NCBI RefSeq assembly: GCF_003268655.1
Contig: NZ_CP029642.1
Location: 3,286,001 to 3,350,000, forward strand
Source: Arthrobacter dokdonellae
GTDB lineage: Bacteria > Actinomycetota > Actinomycetes > Actinomycetales > Micrococcaceae
DNA: 64,000 nucleotides
Reading direction: 5' to 3'
Shown: positions 3,922-33,813 of the stretch, piece after piece
Layout of the letters: each line of letters starts with the position of its first letter
Position numbering within the stretch: the first letter of the stretch is position 1
Translations under genes and position numbers: made by a program
The notes under the pieces: generated by a model
What the model saw: the letters and a program-made list of their open reading frames with translations, nothing else
Told to the model about the DNA's origin: nothing
Database searches by the model: none

Positions 3922-3929
3922 TTCTCGTT

Positions 3930-4058
3930 GAGGTTCGAGATCACGACCTCCCACGCCGCTGAGGTTCGAGATCACGACCGATCCATCTCGGTTCTCATCC
4001 GACGGAGAGGTCGTTATCTCGAACCTCAACAGTTGAAGAAGTGGTTATCTCGAATCTC
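3930..4058. repeat. Nested inverted-repeat element, family A
   Basis: Four half-sites are present. Two direct copies of GAGGTTCGAGATCACGACC occur at 3930-3948 and 3961-3979. Two reverse-complement copies occur at 4009-4027 (one change, C to A) and 4041-4058 (diverged). The inner pair forms a 19-bp stem around a 29-nt loop and the outer pair can form a second, weaker stem. It fills the gap between the fab terminator and the end of the convergent DUF3145 gene. Confidence 0.75.
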
Positions 4059-9674: not shown

Positions 9675-9780
9675 GGCAACCTCCACTGCCAGCGTGGCGG
9701 AGAATTCCACGCCGGGGCAGGGGGGTTGGGCTAAATGTGGACGGCTCGCACCCGGGCATGCCTTGTGGAGGAACAAAGGC

Positions 9781-9819
9781 GGGGACGACGGCGGAACGTG
9801 CGTCCCGCCGTCGTCCCCG
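9781..9819 (-). terminator. Terminator downstream of DUF2469 gene
   Basis: GGGGACGACGGCGG and CCGCCGTCGTCCCC are perfect 14-bp inverted arms around an 11-nt loop. It lies between the end of the DUF2469 gene (9886) and the yraN start, so it separates the rplS-lepB-rnhB-DUF2469 unit from yraN-comM-dprA. Confidence 0.75.
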
Positions 9820-9885
9820 CCGTGTGCGGTGGCACCGTCAGTTCAGCCCGCGTCAGCCCTGGTGCCGACAGCGGCGACGGAGTGC

Positions 9886-23835: not shown

Positions 23836-24348
23836 TCACCGAAGGTCTGCGCACATGGCGATGCGGCGTCCCAGGGCGTCGAGGCCCAGGCGCACTTCGT
23901 CGCGGCGCAGGGCTGCCAACCCAGGCGGCAGCGGCCGTTCCGGCCCTCCGGGCATTTCAACAAAGCCGCAGCTGGCGTAAAACGGTCCGTTGAAGGGCAC
24001 GTCGGCGAAGGTGCACAGCGTCATCGTGTGAAAGCCGACCTCCAGCGCCCACGCCTTGGCCGCCATGACAAGCGCCCGGCCGATCCCCCGCCGTGCGTGC
24101 TCGGGGCTGACGGCCAGCTGGCCCAAATGGGCCTGCCCGTCGACGACTTCCAGGCGGGCGAACCCTACGGGCGGGCGGCCGGCAACCATGATGTGGAAAG
24201 CGCCGGCATAGCTCGCGGCCGTGCCCGGCGGCGGAAAGTCGCCGAAGGGGAACGGTGGATCCAGGGTGGCAAACGCCTGGTCCGCGTCTGCCTCCAGGGC
24301 AGGCAAAAGTGAGAATTCACTCAAGGCCGCCGGACGGATTTCAAGCAT
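23836..24348 (-). CDS. GNAT family N-acetyltransferase
   Basis: 170 residues with the acetyl-CoA-binding motif A LGQLAVSPEHARRGIGRALV followed by MAAKAWALEVGFHTMTLCTF and the NGPFYASCGFVE segment near the C terminus. N terminus MLEIRPAALSEFSLLPAL is typical. Substrate unknown. It stands alone between the HD/LuxR operon and a 580-bp repeat-rich gap. Confidence 0.85.
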   Translation of the reverse strand: MLEIRPAALSEFSLLPALEADADQAFATLDPPFPFGDFPPPGTAASYAGAFHIMVAGRPPVGFARLEVVDGQAHLGQLAVSPEHARRGIGRALVMAAKAWALEVGFHTMTLCTFADVPFNGPFYASCGFVEMPGGPERPLPPGLAALRRDEVRLGLDALGRRIAMCADLR

Positions 24349-24509: not shown

Positions 24510-24545
24510 CCATGCCCTCGCGCCTTGGTGCAGCTCAGGATGCCG

Positions 24546-24634
24546 AGATGCAGATATGAGGCCGATATGGACATATGAGGCTGATTTATCGACCTCATTT
24601 GTCCATGCCGGCCTCAAATATCCGTTTCGACCTC
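24546..24634. repeat. Nested inverted-repeat element, family B, copy 1
   Basis: Four half-sites ending in TGAGG or starting CCTCA. The inner pair (24562-24580 and 24593-24611) forms a 19-20 bp stem with three mismatches around CTGATTTATCGA. The outer pair (about 24546-24561 and 24612-24632) can form a second stem. The inner pair and loop match copy 2 at 32322-32373 closely; the loop differs at one base in twelve. Confidence 0.75.
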
Positions 24635-24931
24635 CGCAAGGGTGGTATTCACGCACGGTACAGCTCCCGGCGGGCCGGCAGCCGGCGACCCCGCCACTGC
24701 CGTACTCTCGGGGACTATTCTTCGCCGCGAAGCGCCCCCCGGCAGATCGGAATCGTCATACCCGAAGCCGCCCGGAACTCCGGACCAGAGGCAGATCGGC
24801 AGCGACGCGGCAGCCAGGAGCGCCGGGTTCATAGCTGCCGGAGCGGCGGCGTCGGGCGTCGCCCGGGCCCTTCGTGTCGGCCGTCGCGCTGGCCCTTCGC
24901 GCCGGAGCGGCGGCGCGAGCGTCGTGTGTCG
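24635..24931. other. Intergenic remainder downstream of hydrolase gene
   Basis: About 300 bp with no convincing gene. A 15-bp direct repeat GCCGGAGCGGCGGCG occurs at 24837-24851 and 24901-24915. A short minus-strand frame at 24614-24832 lacks family features. No terminator with a T-run is seen. Confidence 0.5.
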
Positions 24932-25678
24932 TCAGCCGCCGGCCTCAACGCCGCCGATGAACTCCTCAATCAGGGCCGCCCCTGCCTCGGAGTCCTGCGG
25001 CCGGTGGCCGCCGCGGGTGACCTCGTGGCGGGCGCCGGTGGCGGCGAGGTATGCGGCGATCTCCTCATACAGCGGCTCCCATCCGCCGGTGACGACCAGC
25101 GTGGGCACGCCCGGGACTATGTGGACCGGCGCGTCCCACTGAGGCGCTTGGAGGTGAACGCGGGCCGCGATCCTGGCAGCGGACTCCGCCGGGACCGTCC
25201 GCGGCCGAGCCGTACCGGCAGCGAAGGCGCCAGGCCTGCCGCCGGGCCCGTTCATGGACGCCGTCAGCCGGCGGAACTCGGCGGAGAACGCCGTGTCGGT
25301 CAGGGACGCGCTGCGCGCAAACAGCGGCGCGAGATGTTCGCGGTAGGCGGTGGTGGCGGGCAGCTCGGCCGTCAGCGAGAGCAGGGCAGGCTCGAGCAGC
25401 ACCAGGGACCTGACGAGGTCTGGCCGCTCCACCGCCGCCATCATTGTTGCGATGGCGCCCTGCGCGTGCGCCACGACGTGCCCGCCGTCGGCCAAGGCAT
25501 CAATGACGATCCTGGCATCGCCGGCAAAGTCTGTGGCCACGGGAGGCTCGACGGCGTCAAATCCGGACCGCTTCAGGAAGAGGGCATCGTAGCGCCCGGC
25601 CAGGCGGTGTTGGACAGGCCAGGCCGACGCGCCGTAGCCGTCGATCCCGTGCACAAACACGATCCGGGGTTTAGTCAT
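24932..25678 (-). CDS. Alpha/beta-hydrolase fold protein lacking the nucleophile
   Basis: 248 residues with the alpha/beta-hydrolase layout: an oxyanion-type strand VFVHGIDGYGASAW, the elbow region VVAHAQGAIATMMAAVERPD, the strand VPTLVVTGGWEPLYEEIA and a late His in TRGGHRPQDSE. At the elbow the usual G-x-S-x-G is A-H-A-Q-G, so Ala72 replaces the catalytic Ser; the codon is clearly GCG. It may be a binding protein, or use another residue. It lies 104 bp downstream of the peptide ABC operon, beyond a hairpin. Confidence 0.8.
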   Translation of the reverse strand: MTKPRIVFVHGIDGYGASAWPVQHRLAGRYDALFLKRSGFDAVEPPVATDFAGDARIVIDALADGGHVVAHAQGAIATMMAAVERPDLVRSLVLLEPALLSLTAELPATTAYREHLAPLFARSASLTDTAFSAEFRRLTASMNGPGGRPGAFAAGTARPRTVPAESAARIAARVHLQAPQWDAPVHIVPGVPTLVVTGGWEPLYEEIAAYLAATGARHEVTRGGHRPQDSEAGAALIEEFIGGVEAGG

Positions 25679-25714
25679 TCAAGCAGGGTACCGGACCACC
25701 CTGACAGGGCCGTC

Positions 25715-25742
25715 GACCCCTGGGCCCGCGGACCCAGGGGTC
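25715..25742 (-). terminator. Hairpin at end of peptide ABC operon
   Basis: GACCCCTGGG and CCCAGGGGTC are perfect 10-bp arms with an 8-nt loop, 40 bp past the stop of the ATPase gene. No strong T-run follows on the minus strand. Confidence 0.55.
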
Positions 25743-25781
25743 CAAGCCGCTGGCCGCTGTCTCCAGGCGGACCCCGGCCCG

Positions 25782-28103
25782 CTAGGCGCCCGGCGTCACG
25801 GTCCCCTCGACCAGGGTGTCCGCGGCGGCGTGCCCGTTGATGGGGAAGTGGCAGGCGGTCATGTGCACCATGGTCCCGTGCGCCGCGGCGGCGGCCGTTG
25901 CCGCCTCCACGTCCGCTGCGGGCATGGGAACCGATCCCCCGCCCGGTTGCAGGGGCGGCACCACCTTCGCGCAAATCTCCTGCGCCATGGGGCAGCGGGT
26001 GCGGAAGCGGCAGCCGCTGGGCGGGTTCATCGCCGAGGGCAGTTCGCCCCGCACCCCCAGCTTCGCCTTTTGCCGCTCCACGATGGGGTCCGGGATGGGG
26101 ATGGTGTCGATCAGCCCGCGCGTGTAATGGTGCTGCGGGTGCGAATACACCGCCGCGGCCGGCCCCACTTCCACCATCCGGCCCAGGTACATGACCGCGA
26201 TGACGTCGGAGAGGTAGCGGACCACGGACAGGTCGTGGCTGATGAAAAGGTACGTCAGCTCGCGGTCGCGCTGCAGCTCCTTCATCAGGTTCAGCACCTG
26301 CGCCTGGATGGACACATCCAGCGCCGAGACAGGTTCGTCGGCCACGATCAGCCCCGGCTGCAGGGCCAGCGCCCGTGCCAGGCCGATGCGCTGGCGCTGC
26401 CCGCCGGAAAATTCGTGCGGGTACCGCTCGGCGGCCCGGGCGGGAAGCCCGACGGCGGCCAGGAGCTCGTCCACCCGCTCGTTGCGGTCGCGCGGCGAGC
26501 CCACGTGCTGGATGTCCAGCGGCTCGCGCAGGATGGAACGCACGCGCATGCGCGGGTCCAGCGAAGCGTAGGAGTCCTGGAACATGAACTGCACGTTGCG
26601 CCGACCCTCCTTCGCCTCCTTGCCGCGCAGCTGGGAAATGCGCCTGCCGCGGAAGAGGATCTTCCCGGCCGTGGGCACGTCCAGCCCCACCACCAGCCGC
26701 CCCAGCGTGGTCTTCCCGCAGCCCGACTCCCCCACGAGCCCCAGTGTCCGCCCGCGCGGGATGGACACGGTGACGTCGGCGACGGCGCTGATGTCCCCCA
26801 CGTGGCGGCGCAGCACGGCGCCGGCGGTGACCGGAAAGTCCTTCACCACCCCCTGCACCTGAAGGAGCGGGATGCCGTCGGCCGGAATGAACGTGGTGGG
26901 CGCCACCCAGCCGCGGTCGTCGGACGCCGCGCCGTCGGCCGGCTTCTCCGTCGCCCGGTGGGACGCACCCGGGGTGACCATCGCGCCCGGCCGGGTCCCG
27001 GCGTCGTGCCTGACATGGGCGTCCGGGACGTCGGAGAGGTCCATGCCGGCCTCCAGCTCCGCGGCCTCCACCCGCGCGGCCTCGGGCACGGTGGTGCGCA
27101 GGTCCACGGGCTCGGGCACCTTCAGCGGCGTGGTGCGCGGGACAAAACAGGCGTATTCCTGAGGACCGTACGGGGTGGCGATGGTGGTCACGGGCGGCAC
27201 CTGCGCGCGGCAGGATTCGACGGCGAATCGGCAGCGCGGCGCGAAGCGGCACGCGGGGGGCGGGTCCACGAGGTCCGGGGGGAGGCCCGGAATCGAGTAC
27301 AGCCGTTCGCCCGTCCCGGCGGCGCGCTCGGGCAGCGCCTCGAACAGGGCATCGGTGTAGCGGTGCTTGGGCGCGGCGAACAAGGTGTGGACATCGGCCA
27401 TTTCAACCACCTTGCCGGCGTACATGACCACCACGCGGTCGGCGCTGCCGGCGATGACGCCGAGGTCGTGGGTGACCAGGATCATGGCCATGTGAAATTC
27501 ATCGCGCAGCCTGTCCACGAGCTCCAGGATCTGCTTTTGCACCGTCACGTCCAGGGCGGTGGTGGGCTCATCCGCGATGAGCAGCTTGGGCTGGCAGATC
27601 AACGCCATCGCTATCATCACGCGCTGGCGTTGGCCGCCGGAGAGCTGGTGCGGGAAGTCCTTGACCCGCTGGAGGGGGCTGGGGATGCCAACCAGCCCGA
27701 ACATTTCCACCACCCGCTTCATCGCGTCCCGCTTGGACAGCCCGCGGTGGAGCATGAGTGGCTCGGCCACCTGGTCGCCGATGGGGATGACCGGGTTCAG
27801 CGACGTCATGGGGTCCTGGAAGATCATGCCGATGTCCCCGCCGCGGATCTCGCGCAGCCTGGGCTCGTCCAGCTGCACGAGGTCTTCGCCGTCGAAGAGG
27901 ATTTCGCCGCGGGTGATGTGGCCTCCGGGCGGGAGCAGCCTCTCAATGGACATGGCCGTCATGGTCTTGCCGCTGCCGGACTCCCCCACCAGCCCCAGCG
28001 TTTCCCCGGCGTCCACGTGCAGGCTGACATGGTCCAGGGCATGCACCACCGACTTGCTCAGCTGGATGTCCGTGCTGAGGTCCGTGATCTCCAGGAGTGC
28101 CAT
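25782..28103 (-). CDS. Dipeptide/oligopeptide ABC transporter, fused DppD-DppF ATPase
   Basis: Cytoplasmic ATPase of a peptide importer with two complete nucleotide-binding domains in one 773-residue chain. Domain 1 has Walker A GLVGESGSGKTMT, signature LSGGQRQRVMIA and Walker B KLLIADEPTTALD; domain 2 has GLVGESGCGKTTLG, FSGGQRQRIGLA and GLIVADEPVSALD. Each ends in the oligopeptide-transporter Cys motif (CRFAPRCRFAVESC and CRFRTRCPMAQEIC), which in relatives can bind iron-sulfur. The start is ATG 28103 with AGGAAAGG upstream; the longer open frame overlaps the permease. Last subunit of the operon. Confidence 0.93.
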   Translation of the reverse strand: MALLEITDLSTDIQLSKSVVHALDHVSLHVDAGETLGLVGESGSGKTMTAMSIERLLPPGGHITRGEILFDGEDLVQLDEPRLREIRGGDIGMIFQDPMTSLNPVIPIGDQVAEPLMLHRGLSKRDAMKRVVEMFGLVGIPSPLQRVKDFPHQLSGGQRQRVMIAMALICQPKLLIADEPTTALDVTVQKQILELVDRLRDEFHMAMILVTHDLGVIAGSADRVVVMYAGKVVEMADVHTLFAAPKHRYTDALFEALPERAAGTGERLYSIPGLPPDLVDPPPACRFAPRCRFAVESCRAQVPPVTTIATPYGPQEYACFVPRTTPLKVPEPVDLRTTVPEAARVEAAELEAGMDLSDVPDAHVRHDAGTRPGAMVTPGASHRATEKPADGAASDDRGWVAPTTFIPADGIPLLQVQGVVKDFPVTAGAVLRRHVGDISAVADVTVSIPRGRTLGLVGESGCGKTTLGRLVVGLDVPTAGKILFRGRRISQLRGKEAKEGRRNVQFMFQDSYASLDPRMRVRSILREPLDIQHVGSPRDRNERVDELLAAVGLPARAAERYPHEFSGGQRQRIGLARALALQPGLIVADEPVSALDVSIQAQVLNLMKELQRDRELTYLFISHDLSVVRYLSDVIAVMYLGRMVEVGPAAAVYSHPQHHYTRGLIDTIPIPDPIVERQKAKLGVRGELPSAMNPPSGCRFRTRCPMAQEICAKVVPPLQPGGGSVPMPAADVEAATAAAAAHGTMVHMTACHFPINGHAAADTLVEGTVTPGA

Positions 28104-28165
28104 GGTGCTGCCTTTCCTTTCCTGCCTGATGTACGACGCCGGAGGGCCGGGTTGCGCTTGTTCCT

Positions 28166-29110
28166 TCAGCGCCGCTGCAGCCTGACCTCCACGGAGTCGC
28201 GCAGCCCGTCGCCGACGAGGTTCACGGCCACCACCACCACGATGATCAGGATTCCCGGAGGGTAGATGAGCCACCAGTAGTTGGTGAAGATGAAGGCCGT
28301 GCCGTTGCTGAGCATGCCGCCCCAGTCGGTGGCCGGCGGCGAAATGCCCAGGCCCAGGTAGCCGAGGTAGGCGATGAGCAGGATGGCGTCGGCCACCTGG
28401 AAGGTGGCGTTGACAATGACCGTGCCGATCACGTTGGGCATGATGTGCCGCAGCACCGAATGCCAGGAAGATCCGCCCATGACGTGCACTGCCTGCACGT
28501 ATTCGCGCACGCGCAGCGTCAGGGACTCCCCGCGCACCAGCCGTGCGGGCACCAGCCACGCCGTCAGGCCCAGCACAAAGATCATGACGGGAACGCTTGG
28601 GGAGACGATGGTGACGATGAACAGCAGAAGGAACAGGATGGGGATGGAGAGGATCGCGTCGACAATGCGCATCATGACGGCGTCGACCAGGCCGCCGAAG
28701 AAGCCCGCGATGGCGCCCCACACCGTGCCGACGATGGTCGCGATGATGGCGGCGGCAAAGCCGACGATCAGGGACGTTTGCCCGCCCACCATCAGCCTGC
28801 CCAGCTGGTCGTAGCCGGTCTCGTTGGTGCCCAGCGGATGGCCCGGGCCCGGCGGCAGGTTGACCTGGAGCAGGTTCACCGTGACCTGATCCGTTTTGTA
28901 GACGAGCGGCCCGAGGAAGCAGAACACCACGGCCAGCACCAGGACCACGATCCCCACGATCGCCAGCTTGTTTTGGATGAAGACCTCAAAGCCGAGGCGG
29001 AACATGCTCTTGGCCTTGCCTGCGGGCAGGCCCGTGGCGGCAACCGGCGGCCCTTCCGGGCGCGGCGCCTCGCCGGATACCTCGACCTTCGCCCTGCTTG
29101 GATCGCTCAC
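28166..29110 (-). CDS. Dipeptide/oligopeptide ABC transporter permease, DppC type
   Basis: Inner-membrane channel subunit, 314 residues. An N-terminal cytoplasmic tail precedes the first membrane segment (LAIVGIVVLVLAVVFCFLGP). The HPLGTNETGYDQLGRLMVGG box is typical for DppC, and the EAA-type loop is YVQAVHVMGGSSWHSVLRHI. GTG at 29110 overlaps the DppB stop as GTGA, fixing the start; an upstream open frame is a shadow. Confidence 0.92.
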   Translation of the reverse strand: MSDPSRAKVEVSGEAPRPEGPPVAATGLPAGKAKSMFRLGFEVFIQNKLAIVGIVVLVLAVVFCFLGPLVYKTDQVTVNLLQVNLPPGPGHPLGTNETGYDQLGRLMVGGQTSLIVGFAAAIIATIVGTVWGAIAGFFGGLVDAVMMRIVDAILSIPILFLLLFIVTIVSPSVPVMIFVLGLTAWLVPARLVRGESLTLRVREYVQAVHVMGGSSWHSVLRHIMPNVIGTVIVNATFQVADAILLIAYLGYLGLGISPPATDWGGMLSNGTAFIFTNYWWLIYPPGILIIVVVVAVNLVGDGLRDSVEVRLQRR

Positions 29111-30051
29111 AGCTTCACCCTCGGATCGATGATGGCCAGCGAAACATCCGCCAGCAGGTTCCCGGCCACGGTGGCAAACGCCGTGATGATCACCACGCCC
29201 AGTTCCACCGGGTAGTCGGACGATTGCGCCGCCTGCCAAAACAGCAGGCCCATGCCGGGAAAATTAAAAATGGATTCGGTCACCAGCGCGCCGGCAAACA
29301 GTGCCGGCAGGGACAGGCCCAGCAGCGTGATGATGGGGATCAGTGCGTTCCGCAGCACGTGGTGGTACAAGACGCGGGTTGGCGAGGCACCCTTGGCCCG
29401 GGCCGTGCGGACATAGTCCTGGTCGACGTTGTCCAGCACCGAGGACCGCATGTAGCGGGAAAACCCGGCAATGCTCAGCAGCGCCAGGGTGACGATGGGC
29501 AGGATCATGGCGTCGAACTGTTGGAAGATGGGACCCACACCGTTGGATTGCGGCGCCTCCGGCGGGAACCAGCCCAGGTTCTGCGAAAAGACCTCGATCA
29601 TGATGATGCCGATGAAGAAGGTCGGCGCCGCGTAGAAGATGAAGGAAAACCCCGTGGCCACGTAGTCGAAGGAGCGGTTGCGCCGGACTGCCTGGTAGAT
29701 GCCCAGCGGTATGGCGACGATGACCGTGAGCAGCAGGGAGAGCAGGCTCAGGATGACGGTCTTGGGCAGGCGCTGGATCAGCAGCGAACTGACGGACTGG
29801 TTCAGCTTGACGGAAAAGCCAAAGTTGCCGCTGAACCACTCGCCCAGCTGCCTGAAATACTGGACAAACAAGGGCTGGTCGTAGCCGTTGGCGACATTGA
29901 ACTGCGCCACCTGGAGCGCGGTGGCCCGCGGCCCCAGGATGGCCCGCGCCGCACCGCCGGGAAGCTGGTGCAGCAGGATGAAGACAATGATGGTCACCAC
30001 AAGGACCACGAGGATGGCCTGGGCCAGGCGGCGCAGGATGTAGCCAATCAT
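29107..30051 (-). CDS. Dipeptide/oligopeptide ABC transporter permease, DppB type
   Basis: Partner channel subunit of 314 residues. It starts MIGYILRRLAQAILVVLVVT, the classic DppB first membrane segment with HQLPGG after it. The EAA-type loop is YVRTARAKGASPTRVLYHHV, and PALFAGALVTESIFNFPGMG is a family box. It overlaps dppC by four bases and follows the binding-protein gene by 109 bp. Confidence 0.92.
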   Translation of the reverse strand: MIGYILRRLAQAILVVLVVTIIVFILLHQLPGGAARAILGPRATALQVAQFNVANGYDQPLFVQYFRQLGEWFSGNFGFSVKLNQSVSSLLIQRLPKTVILSLLSLLLTVIVAIPLGIYQAVRRNRSFDYVATGFSFIFYAAPTFFIGIIMIEVFSQNLGWFPPEAPQSNGVGPIFQQFDAMILPIVTLALLSIAGFSRYMRSSVLDNVDQDYVRTARAKGASPTRVLYHHVLRNALIPIITLLGLSLPALFAGALVTESIFNFPGMGLLFWQAAQSSDYPVELGVVIITAFATVAGNLLADVSLAIIDPRVKL

Positions 30052-30160
30052 GATGCCGCGCGCCTCGCCGGTCCCATGCTGGCCAATGCTCCTGCGCCTG
30101 CCATGGCTGGACCACCCTCGTCCCTGTGATGGTGTTTTGTTGTTGTGCCCGAAGGACGGC

Positions 30161-32029
30161 TCAGTAGTGCCATTCCTCGGGGTTGATGGCGCTGTACGGG
30201 TTCTGCGTCGTGGCGCCCTGGAGGCCGTTGGCCACCTCGGTCAGGCTGTAGGTGTAGTTCGGCTGCCAGATCACGGGCAGGTCCTTGGCCAGCGCATCCT
30301 CGTAGGCCTGCATCACGGCCGTGCCACTCTGCGTGGTGGTGTCGGCAATGAGCTTGTCGATGGCCGGGTTGGAATAGCTGCCGCTGTTCGAACCGGCACC
30401 GGTCTCGAAGAGCACCTCGCCCGTCGGGTAGTAGTCAGGTGCGTACACCCAGCCACCGCCCCAGTTTCCCATCTGCCACGTGCAGGTCTTGCCCGAGCAG
30501 GGGATTGAGGTTCCGGTCACCGTATTGAACGGAGCCGGGGTGATGTTCAGCGTGATGCCGACCTGGGCGGCGTTCGACTTCATCGACTGCATGGCGGTCG
30601 TGATTGTCTGGTTGCCGCTGGCATACTGAAGGTTGAATGTAGCCTTGGCGCCAGCCGCGACGCCCGCACCACACTCGCCGGCACCGCTGCCCGGCTTGGC
30701 GCAGACGCTGATGCCGCCCGGGTTGACCGTCCATCCGTTGTCGGTGAGGTCCTTCTTGGCATTGGCGATGCTGAACGGATACGGGTTGTTTTTCTCCGTT
30801 TGGGAAATCAGCGGGCTGTCCGGATAAAGCGGCACGGGCCCGGTGGTTTGCACCCCGTAGTTCTTCGCCGCCGAACTCAGGATGGCTGGCTGGTCAACGA
30901 CCGACTGCAGTGCCTGGCGGAAGTAGAGCTGCTTGAAAATCGGCCCCACGGTGGGGTTGTTGAAATTGATCGGGAAGTAGTTGATCCCGTACAGGAACCA
31001 CGGCGCCAGCGTGTAGTTGGCGCTCAAGGGGTTGGGCCCGGCCTCGGCGGGGCCGGTGCTGGCCGGCTTGGCTGCCTGCAGGTCCTGGGTGGGCAGGTAA
31101 CCAACATCGATGGTGTTCCCACCGCGCAAGACCTGGAATTCGGCGTCGTCCGTGGTGAACGGAACCTCAATGAACTCCTTGAGGCTGGCCTTGACCGGCC
31201 CGGAGTAGGTGGGGTTCGGAACAAAGGTGATGTGGCCGTCGGCGTTGAACTTCGTCAGCTTCCACGGCCCGTCCACGACCTGCCACAGCGGGTTGGTGGC
31301 GTACGTCGGCAGGTCCTTCGATTGTGAAATCAGGTACTTGTAGACGGCAGCGCAGCCGGACTCGTTCGTGGCGCAGTCTCCCTTGGTGTTGGCGGCCGTC
31401 ATGTCCCAGGCGTCCGGCATGGGGGTGATGGTGCTCAACTGGTTGTACAGGAACCACTGCTGGCTGTAGGCCTTGTCCGTGTTGAACACGATGGTCTTCG
31501 CATCCGGTGTGGAGACGGAGACGACGTTGTCCGGAAACTGGCCCGGCGTGTACGCGGCGTAGTTCTTCTTCTCCGCCTTGAGCATGTTGTACCAGAACAT
31601 CACGTTCTGTGCCGTCACGCTGGTGCCGTCGGACCACTTGTAGTCCTTGAGCTTGACGGTGACCGTCTTGCCGCCGTTGCTGAAAACGGGTTCCGCGGCC
31701 AGACTCAGCGAATCGCTGACCTCGGCCTTGCCGTCGTTGCCGAACCAGTACAGCGGCCGGAACAGCAGGTACTGCAGGTCCGAGGAGTTGGAAACGGTAA
31801 AATCAGCGAGTGGCGAGAAGGGCCAAATCCAGTTCGGCACTGTGTTGGGCGGTTCCGCGAACGTGGCGGTGTTGGCAGACTTTCCCGGGGCATTTCCTGA
31901 ACTGGAGGTGGGGCTCGAGTTCCCGCTTCCGGAGGAGCACCCCGTCAATGCCAGCAAAACCACTGCAATACTTCCAAATATCCGGAAGATCGGCTTCCGG
32001 ATCCCCCCATGAGTTCGCAACTTTTTCAT
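30161..32029 (-). CDS. Peptide ABC transporter substrate-binding lipoprotein
   Basis: Family 5 extracellular solute-binding protein, 622 residues. The signal peptide MKKLRTHGGIRKPIFRIFGS leads to the lipobox LTGC and a Ser-rich linker. Family-type segments include LKDYKWSDGTSVTAQNVMFW and the C-terminal DLPVIWQPNYTYSLTEVANG. Two adjacent ATGs exist; GGAGG is six bases from the second (32029) and only three from the first (32032), so 32029 is preferred. First gene of the operon, under the promoter at 32094-32122. Confidence 0.92.
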   Translation of the reverse strand: MKKLRTHGGIRKPIFRIFGSIAVVLLALTGCSSGSGNSSPTSSSGNAPGKSANTATFAEPPNTVPNWIWPFSPLADFTVSNSSDLQYLLFRPLYWFGNDGKAEVSDSLSLAAEPVFSNGGKTVTVKLKDYKWSDGTSVTAQNVMFWYNMLKAEKKNYAAYTPGQFPDNVVSVSTPDAKTIVFNTDKAYSQQWFLYNQLSTITPMPDAWDMTAANTKGDCATNESGCAAVYKYLISQSKDLPTYATNPLWQVVDGPWKLTKFNADGHITFVPNPTYSGPVKASLKEFIEVPFTTDDAEFQVLRGGNTIDVGYLPTQDLQAAKPASTGPAEAGPNPLSANYTLAPWFLYGINYFPINFNNPTVGPIFKQLYFRQALQSVVDQPAILSSAAKNYGVQTTGPVPLYPDSPLISQTEKNNPYPFSIANAKKDLTDNGWTVNPGGISVCAKPGSGAGECGAGVAAGAKATFNLQYASGNQTITTAMQSMKSNAAQVGITLNITPAPFNTVTGTSIPCSGKTCTWQMGNWGGGWVYAPDYYPTGEVLFETGAGSNSGSYSNPAIDKLIADTTTQSGTAVMQAYEDALAKDLPVIWQPNYTYSLTEVANGLQGATTQNPYSAINPEEWHY

Positions 32030-32093
32030 CATGCGCCTCCATGGCAGAGCGCGGAAGCGGGCCTGTCTGGTCCACTCAAGGCTCCTACTGGAG

Positions 32094-32122
32094 ATTGTAA
32101 ACCTCCCCCGCCGTACTGTCAG
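32094..32122 (-). promoter_or_regulatory. Promoter of peptide ABC operon
   Basis: On the minus strand CTGACA (32122-32117) lies exactly 17 bp from TACAAT (32099-32094), a near-consensus pair. Transcription would begin about 58 bases before the binding-protein start. Confidence 0.75.
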
Positions 32123-32321
32123 GAGGACGATTTGGCCACGAAAAGGCCTAAGGAACGCCGTTTTGCCTGGCACGGATGGGCATTTGCGCGGTGTTCCGCA
32201 GGTCACGGTTGCCAATGGGCGTTCTCTGGCAGTTTTCTACCAGTTTCCTGCCAATTCCCCGGGTAGGCAGGCAAAAGGTGCCGCTCGGGGCCGCTGCCTG
32301 CCCGTCTCCAGCGCGGAGGAT

Positions 32322-32373
32322 GTCGATATGGATATTTGAGGCTGATATATCGACCTCAAATATCCATATCGAC
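32322..32373. repeat. Perfect inverted repeat, family B, copy 2
   Basis: GTCGATATGGATATTTGAGG (32322-32341) and its exact reverse complement (32354-32373) form a perfect 20-bp stem around CTGATATATCGA. Partial pairing extends about 8 bp further on each side. It lies between the divergent peptide operon and the MFS gene, 28 bp before the MFS start, so it also overlaps that gene's likely promoter region (TTGAGG at 32336, AATATC 17 bp later). Confidence 0.85.
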
Positions 32374-32400
32374 CTCCTCGCCGCCATGTGAGGTTCTACT

Positions 32401-33813
32401 GTGGGATGTGTGAGTGTCGAGGAAGAGAATTCCGGCGCGCGGGTTGAGGACGCAGCGCCCGGCGGGGCAGCGCCCGGCGGCATTCTCGGCCGCGGCTACC
32501 GCACTGTCACGCTGGGGATCTGTGCGCTCATCGTGCTGTCCGCCTTCGAGGCGCTGGCCATCACCACCATCATGCCGACCATCAGCGCGGCACTGGACGG
32601 TGCGGCGCTCTACGCGCTCGCCTTCGCGGGACCCCTGGCCGCCGGCGTCGTGGGCATGGTGCTGGCCGGAAACTGGTGCGACCGCGCCGGTCCGAGGGGT
32701 TCCCTCTACGCCTCCGTGGTGCTGTTCGCCGCCGGGTTGGCGGTCGTCGGCACCGCACCCGGCATGCCGGTCTTCCTGGCCGGCCGCCTTGTGGAGGGGC
32801 TCGGCACCGGAGCGCTGACCGTTGCCCTCTACGTGGTGGTGGCCCGGGCCTACCCGTCCGCACTCCACCCGCAGATCTTTGCCGCGTTTGCCGCCTCGTG
32901 GGTTGTGCCCTCGCTCGTCGGCCCGCTGATCGCCGGGCTGATTGCGCAGACCCTTGGGTGGCGGTGGGTGTTTCTGGGGGTCATTGGGCTGGTGGCTGCC
33001 GCCTTGGCCATGGTCATCCCCGCCATGGCCCGGCTGCGCCGTCCCGCCGGCGGGCCGACCGTTCCGTGGAACCTGCGCCGCCTCGGCTGGGCCCTGCTGG
33101 CCGCGGCGGCCGTGCTCGGCGTCAACCTCCTGGCCGACTCCAAGGGCCTGCTCTTCTGGATAGGCCCCGCGGCGGCGGCCGTCATCGCGTTGTTGGCGCT
33201 GCGCCCGCTGCTTCCCCGGCGCACGCTGATGTCCGACGTCGGCCTACCCAGCGTGATTCTCAGCCGCGGCCTGGTTGCCGGCGCGTTCTTCGGCGCCGAC
33301 GTGTACATTCCCTACCTCTTGACCGTGCGATACGGCTTCCCGCCGTTGGCCGCCGGGCTCTCCGTGACCGTCTCCGGCCTGTGCTGGGCGGTCGGCTCGT
33401 GGCTGCAAAGCCGGTTGGGCGGCCGCCTCAGCCATGCGCGCAGCATCCGCTTCGGCGCCGTTTTCCTGTGCCTGGCCATCGCCGCGGCAGGTGCGACGGC
33501 GGCCCTCACCCTGGTGCCCGCGGTCGCCATCGCCGGATGGGCGTTGGGCGGATTCGGCATGGGACTGATGTATCCGCGCACCAGCGTCGCGACCCTCGAG
33601 TACTCCACGGTGGAGACCCAGGGCTTCAACAGCTCCGCGCTGAGCATCGCCGACTCCATCGGCGCCTCACTTGCCCTGGCGGCGACGGCCATCGTGTTCG
33701 CCGCGCTCGCCGGGCTGGGCGGGGCCTGGCCGTTCGCCGGTTGCTTCGCGCTGGCGGTGCTGCCCGCACTGGCGGCGTTCGCGCTGGCGCCGCGCGCACG
33801 CCGTGTGGCGTAG
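32401..33813 (+). CDS. MFS drug-exporter-like transporter
   Basis: 470-residue major facilitator with 12 to 14 membrane segments. After a charged N-terminal tail, the first segment ends AFEALAITTIMPTIS, and motif A is seen as LAGNWCDRAGPRGSLYAS. The region GGFGMGLMYPRTSVATLEYS lies in the C-terminal half. This layout fits multidrug exporters of the DHA2 kind. GTG at 32401 has GAGG eight bases upstream; GTG at 32410 is also possible. It converges on ffh with only 47 bp between. Confidence 0.85.
   Translation: MGCVSVEEENSGARVEDAAPGGAAPGGILGRGYRTVTLGICALIVLSAFEALAITTIMPTISAALDGAALYALAFAGPLAAGVVGMVLAGNWCDRAGPRGSLYASVVLFAAGLAVVGTAPGMPVFLAGRLVEGLGTGALTVALYVVVARAYPSALHPQIFAAFAASWVVPSLVGPLIAGLIAQTLGWRWVFLGVIGLVAAALAMVIPAMARLRRPAGGPTVPWNLRRLGWALLAAAAVLGVNLLADSKGLLFWIGPAAAAVIALLALRPLLPRRTLMSDVGLPSVILSRGLVAGAFFGADVYIPYLLTVRYGFPPLAAGLSVTVSGLCWAVGSWLQSRLGGRLSHARSIRFGAVFLCLAIAAAGATAALTLVPAVAIAGWALGGFGMGLMYPRTSVATLEYSTVETQGFNSSALSIADSIGASLALAATAIVFAALAGLGGAWPFAGCFALAVLPALAAFALAPRARRVA

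What the first reader, a model, noticed from the sequence alone, without database searches (positions are those of the whole stretch)
24546..32373. Matching palindromic repeats flank the peptide-transporter cassette
Element B occurs at 24546-24634 (diverged, nested) and at 32322-32373 (perfect 20-bp stem). The 12-nt loops differ at a single base, so they are clearly the same family. They lie just outside the hydrolase gene (24932) and the promoter of the peptide ABC operon (32122), bracketing a 7.6-kb block that also sits at a break in the conserved ffh-rpsP order. Either the block moved in by recombination between such elements, or these elements gather in gaps between transcription units. 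The perfect state of copy 2 implies recent arrival or selection.
Basis: partly seen in the sequence, partly recalled or inferred. Interest (0 to 1): 0.72.

Follow-up and report, generated by a model that had tools for sequence, protein, structure and literature searches.

The report
Four-box palindromic repeats in Arthrobacter
Two small hairpin-shaped DNA repeats beside a peptide-transporter gene block belong to a family of short palindromes scattered between genes in Arthrobacter, and comparison with relatives gives no sign that they carried the transporter genes in.

Summary
Copies sit at 24538-24635 and 32318-32377, far beyond chance. The "mobile cassette" reading is not supported: the hydrolase plus peptide-ABC block lies beside ffh in 8 of 22 congeners (a ninth partial), and the family model finds no convincing B element at its edges in any of the 22.

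The genome holds 22 confident copies plus one doubtful. None of 44 copies in three species lies inside a called gene. Gaps between transcription units, convergent and also divergent, are over-represented.

The unexpected part is the architecture. Palindromes with quite different arms in other congeners align on their centres to one plan: two ~34-nt arms, each with two GAnnCnG boxes 19 bp apart. The "nested" first copy is the usual 60 bp plus one extra 19-bp unit per arm. At six sites with alignable flanks, copies changed one arm at a time with no paired change; paired changes appear only where flanks do not prove common descent. This fits arrival or renewal as ready-made palindromes, then decay.

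Closest known kind: REP/MITE-like intergenic palindromes, especially transposase-less CGTC REPs. It lacks their size and unpaired tag, and this genome shows no Y1 transposase. Mover and function are unknown.

The parts
24538..24635 (.). B element copy 1: 98-bp imperfect palindrome with three 19-bp-spaced units per arm (60-bp element plus one extra 19-bp unit in each arm)
32318..32377 (.). B element copy 2: 60-bp near-perfect palindrome (89% of 27 core pairs Watson-Crick; perfect inner 20-bp stem)
32322..32341 (+). left arm of the perfect 20-bp stem of copy 2
32354..32373 (-). right arm of the perfect 20-bp stem of copy 2
23836..24348 (-). context: GNAT acetyltransferase gene downstream of copy 1
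   Evidence: PF00583
25782..28238 (-). context: fused oligopeptide ABC ATPase gene (start approximate)
   Evidence: two ABC_tran and two oligo_HPY stretches
28226..30051 (-). context: two oligopeptide permease genes (OppC-like, OppB-like; starts approximate)
30161..32044 (-). context: solute-binding protein gene (SBP_bac_5; start approximate)
32401..33813 (+). context: MFS transporter gene starting just after copy 2; found at this place only in G000, G010 and G019

Best explanation
The two B elements are members of a dispersed family of non-coding intergenic palindromes, REP/MITE-like in kind. The family has 22 confident copies in this Arthrobacter-clade genome and belongs to a wider group of palindromes with one shared plan: a ~34-nt arm with two GAnnCnG boxes 19 bp apart, then its mirror image. 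Shown: copy numbers, intergenic placement, the shared plan in many of the palindromes examined, and one-sided change at sites whose flanks support common descent. Inferred: copies arrive at, or are renewed in, a gap as ready-made palindromes; copies landing between transcription units are tolerated; they then decay by independent mutation of the arms. Also inferred: when transcribed they form a strong hairpin in untranslated RNA. The enzyme that spreads or renews them is not identified. Their position on both sides of the hydrolase/opp block follows from gaps at the ends of a gene cluster, not from movement of the block.
For: 23 sites at E up to 1 in the genome, one of them doubtful; matches in 13 of 22 congeners with R2 and 16 of 22 with R3 (own genome not counted). 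0 of 44 copies inside a called gene, four overlapping a gene end by up to 23 bp. 15 of 22 own copies in non-tandem gaps (9 convergent, 6 divergent) against 40 of 249 background gaps. Of 13 comparisons at 10 corresponding sites, the six with a flank at least 0.80 identical show 23 one-sided changes, 0 paired and 2 unpaired double changes; the other seven show 24 paired, 25 one-sided and 1 unpaired double. Six own copies whose G019 gap reads without a palindrome are more perfect than six shared copies (P = 0.003). G-T (38) and A-C (32) mismatches are about equal, with 115 other mismatches, so no RNA-wobble signature. 20 of the flanking proteins were scanned with Pfam: unrelated families, four without a match, none a transposase. 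The block is conserved without elements.
Against: No clean empty site with a target-site duplication was found; the gaps are too diverged and in several cases anchored on one side only. The 0.80 flank cut-off was chosen after seeing the data: at 0.70 two more comparisons join and the tally becomes 34 one-sided and 4 paired. Shared copies are not significantly less perfect than all 14 other own copies (P = 0.18). Gaps look re-occupied or converted in place: other palindromes or decayed look-alikes sit in the same gap at 1467k (G010, G019) and 620k (G010; a possible end remnant in G019), and type I palindromes with different arms sit in the rpsP-amidase gap of four congeners. No mobilising enzyme is known. 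Background gap classes come partly from orthologous, hence non-independent, regions and from my own simple gene caller.
Confidence: 0.6

Rival explanations
1. The hydrolase/peptide-transporter block is a cassette that moved in by recombination between flanking B elements.
For: Two copies of the family do flank the block 7.7 kb apart, and opp genes are absent at this place in 13 of 22 congeners.
Against: The block is at the same place in 8 of 22 congeners with no convincing B element there. The copies enclose the hydrolase gene, which stays near ffh even where opp is missing. G019, which has both the block and the MFS gene, has no palindrome at either gap.
Confidence: 0.03
2. The hairpin is selected as RNA: a bidirectional 3'-end element (terminator or mRNA-end protector) placed after genes.
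For: 9 of 22 own copies in convergent gaps against 23 of 249 background gaps; median 14 bp to the nearer of the two stop codons in 15 convergent copies, some of them orthologs of each other; very stable folds; covariation above shuffles in the whole set. Type I palindromes of other congeners carry A and T tracts at the two ends, like bidirectional terminators.
Against: Divergent gaps are over-represented too: 6 of 22 against 17 of 249 (P = 0.003; P = 0.03 against the length-weighted share). Type II copies have no T tract and the terminator scan reports neither window copy. Copies with the best-supported orthology lose pairs without compensation, and G-T is not favoured over A-C.
Confidence: 0.25
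3. Palindromes are perfected in place by replication template switching (quasipalindrome correction), with no dispersal and no function.
For: Template switching makes quasipalindromes more perfect (PMC7202029, abstract and part of the introduction read). Three species have three different palindromes in the 1074k gap, and all 16 differences in the three (not independent) comparisons are paired. Type I palindromes in the rpsP-amidase gap of G007, G015 and G021 differ by 14 paired, 9 one-sided and 6 unpaired double changes. Multi-base swaps such as GG to TC occur in the arms.
Against: Does not explain a genome-wide family consensus, the 19-bp boxes shared across quite different arms, or the one-sided change at the six best-flanked orthologs.
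Confidence: 0.15
4. The palindrome is a four-box recognition site (two boxes per arm, 19 bp apart, head to head) for an unknown sequence-specific protein, for example a recombinase/transposase or a chromosome-organising protein.
For: The boxes and the 19-bp spacing persist while spacers diverge; copy 1 has exactly one more 19-bp unit per arm; copies are missing from two large chromosome segments (top-two-gap P = 0.0005 after merging neighbours).
Against: No binding protein is known. Most type comparisons used copies found with a type II model, which favours those columns; the ffh-anchored regions are free of that bias, but the two full matches there come from the same gap in two species. Three of 14 arms lack the 19-bp repeat. 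The genome-position test was made after seeing the positions.
Confidence: 0.25

Closest known systems
CGTC-tagged REPs (Di Nocera et al. 2013, PMC3733652; abstract, sections 6 and 15 and passages read)
   Same: Intergenic palindromic repeats in many variants, some species-specific; found mainly in convergent and unidirectional gaps next to stop codons; no dedicated transposase
   Different: Those have 8-9 bp stems, an unpaired CGTC tag and 20-40 bp length. Here the whole 60 bp is palindromic, CGTC where present lies inside the stem, there are two boxes per arm, and divergent gaps are used too. 'Actinobacteri', 'Arthrobacter' and 'Streptomyces' do not occur in its main text
GTAG REPs / REPINs with RAYT transposases (same paper; PMC3116915 seen in a search listing only)
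   Same: Dispersed intergenic palindromes, non-coding
   Different: No conserved GTAG tag; no Y1 transposase (PF01797) match in this genome; few copies (22 confident)
Bacterial MITEs and ERIC (PMC10969869, passages read)
   Same: Small repeats, intergenic, foldable, tens of copies
   Different: Almost no unique centre between the arms; no target-site duplication shown; no parent element with these arms seen (all 17 arm hits with up to 2 mismatches in this genome fall in compact elements)
REP predictions in Arthrobacter livingstonensis (RepRanger, PMC12306157, passages read)
   Same: A generic palindrome tool was run on an Arthrobacter; its table row gives counts 5,512 and 705 (column headings not seen)
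   Different: A table row; no family, consensus or architecture in the passages I read

Membership tests
REP/MITE-like dispersed intergenic palindromic repeats (general kind) | many copies of one palindromic sequence per genome | tested here: met
   22 confident copies
REP/MITE-like dispersed intergenic palindromic repeats (general kind) | extragenic location | tested here: met
   0 of 44 inside a called gene; four overlap a gene end by up to 23 bp
GTAG REP / REPIN | GTAG tag at one end | tested here: not met
   ends read GGATG...CATCC; no conserved GTAG by eye
GTAG REP / REPIN | RAYT (Y1) transposase in the genome | tested here: not met
   PF01797: no match at E up to 0.01 in G000; the control rings in 6 of 14 genomes
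CGTC REP | unpaired CGTC motif at one end of an 8-9 bp stem | tested here: not met
   CGTC or its variants lie inside a ~30-bp stem
MITE | target-site duplication at empty versus filled sites | tested here: inconclusive
   gaps too diverged between species
MITE | arms shared with a full-length transposon | tested here: inconclusive
   arm word with up to 2 mismatches occurs only in compact elements in G000; other genomes and looser arms not tested
Intrinsic terminator | G+C-rich stem followed by a T run | tested here: not met
   neither window copy reported; G+C 0.42 and 0.49
ERIC | 127-bp enterobacterial consensus (recalled) | not tested
   different length and taxon; no alignment to ERIC made
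Known structured RNA (Rfam) | match at gathering score | tested here: not met
   0 matches in the window

The most novel reading that the evidence does not exclude
Arthrobacter and some other Micrococcaceae carry a rapidly diversifying system of four-box palindromic sites (boxes GAnnCnG, 19 bp apart, two per arm, head to head). A still unknown sequence-specific protein recognises and spreads or renews them, and its specificity co-diverges with the sites, so that different species have their own site sequences on the same plan.
Probability: 0.25. Interest if true: 0.68.

Novelty: new variant of a known kind. Interest (0 to 1): 0.45.

Why it matters
Short palindromic repeats are common unexplained features of bacterial genomes, and one large class of them (CGTC REPs) has no known mover. 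Here is an actinobacterial group with no Y1 transposase match in the genome studied, a fixed 19-bp internal period and many diverged variants. That gives a concrete handle: a protein that reads boxes 19 bp apart can be looked for. It also warns against reading paired repeats at the edges of a gene block as proof that the block is mobile.

Tried and rejected
Rejected: a mobile cassette bracketed by B elements; RAYT-driven REPINs in this genome; a known Rfam RNA; a nested insertion in copy 1 (it is one extra 19-bp unit per arm). No match outside chromosomes: exact pattern in viral contigs, copy 2 against plasmids and phages. An ori/ter-symmetric layout does not fit: parS-like sites lie at 496.7-508.9 kb and the best dif-like site at 2.585 Mb (one of three matches to a pattern recalled from memory). 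Tried without result: precise empty sites with target duplications (of nine queried sites, 3157k and 3213k gave no match in the three genomes). The named genome scan gave two records, Arthrobacter silviterrae and A. wenxiniae, whose contig lengths equal those of G004:C56 and G019:C22; these names, and the genus, are therefore inferred. The species of the window is not known. Papers: by titles and abstract starts, searches listed nothing that describes this family (63 and 65 each listed 15 of 17); passages of PMC2267715 show stem-loop counts for Corynebacterium and Mycobacterium only. The library lacks most subscription papers, so 'undescribed' is only as strong as those searches.

Limits and rows dropped: the genome search scored at most 150 of several hundred to about 1700 first-look candidates per genome in the genus searches (20 in the family search), so weak copies may be missed. 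Gene calls are from my own codon-usage script. Alignment A2 (41 rows) leaves out 1454k (doubtful), 1467k (hybrid) and copy 1 (three units). In one search my OppC query was out of frame, so its rows are not used; the block is judged by the ABC ATPase, OppB and OppA rows. In one search the G012 copy is out of register and its three comparisons are not counted.
Full report
OBSERVATION. Both elements are there. Copy 2 has the perfect 20-bp stem 32322-32341/32354-32373 with loop CTGATATATCGA; copy 1 has loop CTGATTTATCGA. Four hits of the core word with up to 3 mismatches lie in the window, all in these elements; shuffles average 0.02. Copy 2 is the only palindrome of score 20 or more in the window (21.5); the best in each of 20 Markov-1 resamplings was 10-13. 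The window is 67.9% G+C, the elements 42% and 49%.

FAMILY. In the window's own genome (4.53 Mb, 2 contigs) the core word with up to 2 mismatches gives 17 hits, all in compact elements. A covariance model from 8 copies (R2) gives 46 strand-matches = 23 sites at E up to 1, all on contig 1; one (1454k) is doubtful and one (1467k) is a hybrid with a foreign inner arm. R2 finds matches in 13 of 22 congeners and R3 (41 copies) in 16 of 22, own genome not counted; most copies are in G019 and G004. In a draw of 245 genomes of the family, 9 match at 1e-5, the own genome included: six of this genus and three of other genera (with stricter filters and only 20 candidates scored per genome). The named scan for the centre gave only Arthrobacter silviterrae and A. 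wenxiniae.

PLACEMENT. With my own gene caller, 0 of 44 copies (23 own, 13 G019, 8 G004) lie inside a gene; four overlap a gene end by 7-23 bp. Own copies: 9 convergent, 8 tandem, 6 divergent. Leaving out the doubtful one, 9 of 22 are convergent against 23 of 249 background gaps of 70 bp or more (P about 8e-5), and 6 of 22 are divergent against 17 of 249 (P = 0.003; P = 0.03 against the length-weighted share), so tandem gaps are strongly under-represented (7 of 22 against 209 of 249). That background comes from the window and orthologous ffh regions and is not independent. In 15 convergent copies, some of them orthologs of each other, the nearer of the two stop codons is a median 14 bp away (distances taken by hand). 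The enrichment is thus for boundaries of transcription units in general, and not only for 3' ends. Twenty flanking proteins scanned against Pfam are unrelated, four have no match, and none is a transposase. Merging neighbours within 10 kb leaves 17 places; the two largest gaps, 1.46 and 1.24 Mb, together have P = 0.0005, a test chosen after seeing the data.

THE BLOCK. I fetched the ffh side of all 22 congeners. Hydrolase plus the opp genes lie together next to ffh in 8 (G004, G005, G006, G009, G010, G011, G014, G019; the GNAT gene on the far side was hit in all but G009, and in G004 it is 6.4 kb away) and partly in G021. In the remaining 13 the hydrolase lies near ffh without opp. The MFS gene occurs only in G010 and G019 besides the window. 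R3 at E up to 1 finds nothing at the two gaps in any congener except one match of E = 0.54 and 83% G+C in G004's GNAT-hydrolase interval, which I take as chance. A model-free scan finds no palindrome of score 18 or more at the block's edges in the eight with the block. Two congeners without opp have long palindromes of other sequence in equivalent gaps: G008 between hydrolase and ffh (box score 6 of 8, no 19-bp repeat by eye) and G018 at the hydrolase 3' end (box score 2). So the block did not need B elements, and such gaps attract hairpins in general. In G019 the gap before the MFS gene aligns and has no palindrome.

HOW COPIES CHANGE. On all 41 copies the pairing is strongly above column shuffles (114 double changes against 63.6 expected, 0 of 500), which alone would suggest compensation. 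But relatedness confounds that, so I compared copies at corresponding sites: 10 sites, 13 comparisons. In the six comparisons where at least one 40-nt flank is 0.80 or more identical (null 95% = 0.65) there are 23 one-sided changes, 0 paired, 2 unpaired double changes. In the other seven there are 24 paired, 25 one-sided, 1 unpaired double; the 1074k gap holds three different palindromes in three species. With a 0.70 cut-off, 778k and 934k/G019 move over and the first group becomes 34 one-sided and 4 paired. Type I palindromes in the rpsP-amidase gap of G007, G015 and G021, with flanks only 0.50-0.65 identical, differ by 14 paired, 9 one-sided and 6 unpaired double changes (a fourth, in G012, is out of register and not counted). 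So paired change is concentrated where common descent of the copies is not shown, and the best-supported orthologs change arm by arm. Six own copies whose G019 gap reads without a palindrome, mostly anchored on one side, are more perfect than six shared ones (P = 0.003), but against all 14 other own copies the difference is not significant (P = 0.18). G-T and A-C mismatches are about equal (38, 32, beside 115 others), so wobble pairing is not favoured. Gaps can be re-occupied: at 1467k G010 has another palindrome in the same gap and G019 a decayed look-alike; at 620k G010 has a decayed look-alike and G019 a possible end remnant.

ARCHITECTURE. Other congeners carry palindromes with other arms: type I AAATGAyvCCGATCCCGC... 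(G002, G003, G007, G012, G013, G015, G017, G021) and type III GGGGGCTGTTGTGGTGATCGGAGGCTG... (G008, G009, G020, with variants in G003 and G006). In 14 arms chosen from the types, self-identity at offset 19 averages 0.48 against about 0.25 at most other offsets (0.36 at offset 22); 0 of 2000 shuffles reach 0.48. Three arms (G010 L158, G016 L170, own 1467k) do not show it. Aligned on the centre, the type-weighted consensus of 39 elements is nnnagGAngCcGatntGGncnttgGaGgCcGnta, i.e. the box GAnnCnG at columns 6-12 and again at 25-31. Most of these palindromes were found with a type II model, which favours those columns. The bias-free sample is the ffh-anchored regions: of 10 palindromes of score 20 or more there outside the window's own, two (G021 L127, G007 L134) match 8 of 8 box positions, one 6, the rest 0-3; a shuffled arm reaches 8 with probability 4e-5. 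Those two are type I in the same rpsP-amidase gap, so they count as one case, and the product given should not be used. L127 was not reported by R3 at E up to 1. Over all fetched loci (1.29 Mb with overlaps, 63 palindromes) scores are nearly bimodal, 5-8 against 0-5, with one register-shifted member scoring 1 (L072) and one ffh-region hairpin at 6 (L128). Two other genera show the same 19-bp repeat by my reading (G106, box 8; G118, 6-7); the third (G162) scores 3. Copy 1 in the window is 98 bp = 60 + 2 x 19: one more unit in each arm.

WHAT IT IS. A dispersed intergenic palindrome family of REP/MITE kind with its own architecture. The nearest published group I found is the CGTC REPs, which also lack a transposase and sit next to stop codons in convergent gaps (PMC3733652, abstract and sections 6 and 15 read), but they have 8-9 bp stems and an unpaired tag. 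There is no Y1 transposase match in this genome. Template switching can perfect quasipalindromes (PMC7202029, abstract and part of the introduction read) and may explain in-place renewal. Paper searches listed no description of this family. What moves it and what it does are open. My order is passive or selfish dispersal or renewal with tolerated hairpins, then, about equally, a selected RNA role and a recognition site for an unknown protein.

Noticed in passing
window 3927-4058: A second, longer palindrome with a different arm (GAGGTTCGAGATCACGACC repeated at about 31 bp in each arm); another repeat family or regulator site.
   Followed up: no
window 9778-9821: GGACGACGGCGGAACG hairpin; look-alikes lie in the ffh-anchored regions of G003, G006, G014 and G015, those of G003, G006 and G014 next to A runs: terminator-like.
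   Followed up: partly
G000:C1:3427473 and 3427704 (L091): Two B elements about 231 bp apart in what looks like a tandem duplication, with nearly identical right arms and different left arms.
   Followed up: partly
G000:C1:1467036 (L085) and G010:C72:13808 (L155): The same gap holds two quite different palindromes in two species; the own copy has a type II outer arm and a foreign inner arm.
   Followed up: partly
rpsP-amidase gap in L127 (G021), L133 (G015), L134 (G007), L135 (G012): Four congeners have type I palindromes with different arms in one gap whose flanks no longer align: a recurrently occupied or converted site, empty of such a palindrome in the window.
   Followed up: partly
L139 4079-4148 and L170 about 1590 (G016): Another palindrome family (ACTGGCCCGCAWTTGATGT...) that does not fit the four-box plan.
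   Followed up: no
G000 chromosome: B copies are missing from two segments of 1.46 Mb (around the dif-like site) and 1.24 Mb (from 3.74 Mb through the contig end to 0.62 Mb, including the parS-like sites).
   Followed up: partly
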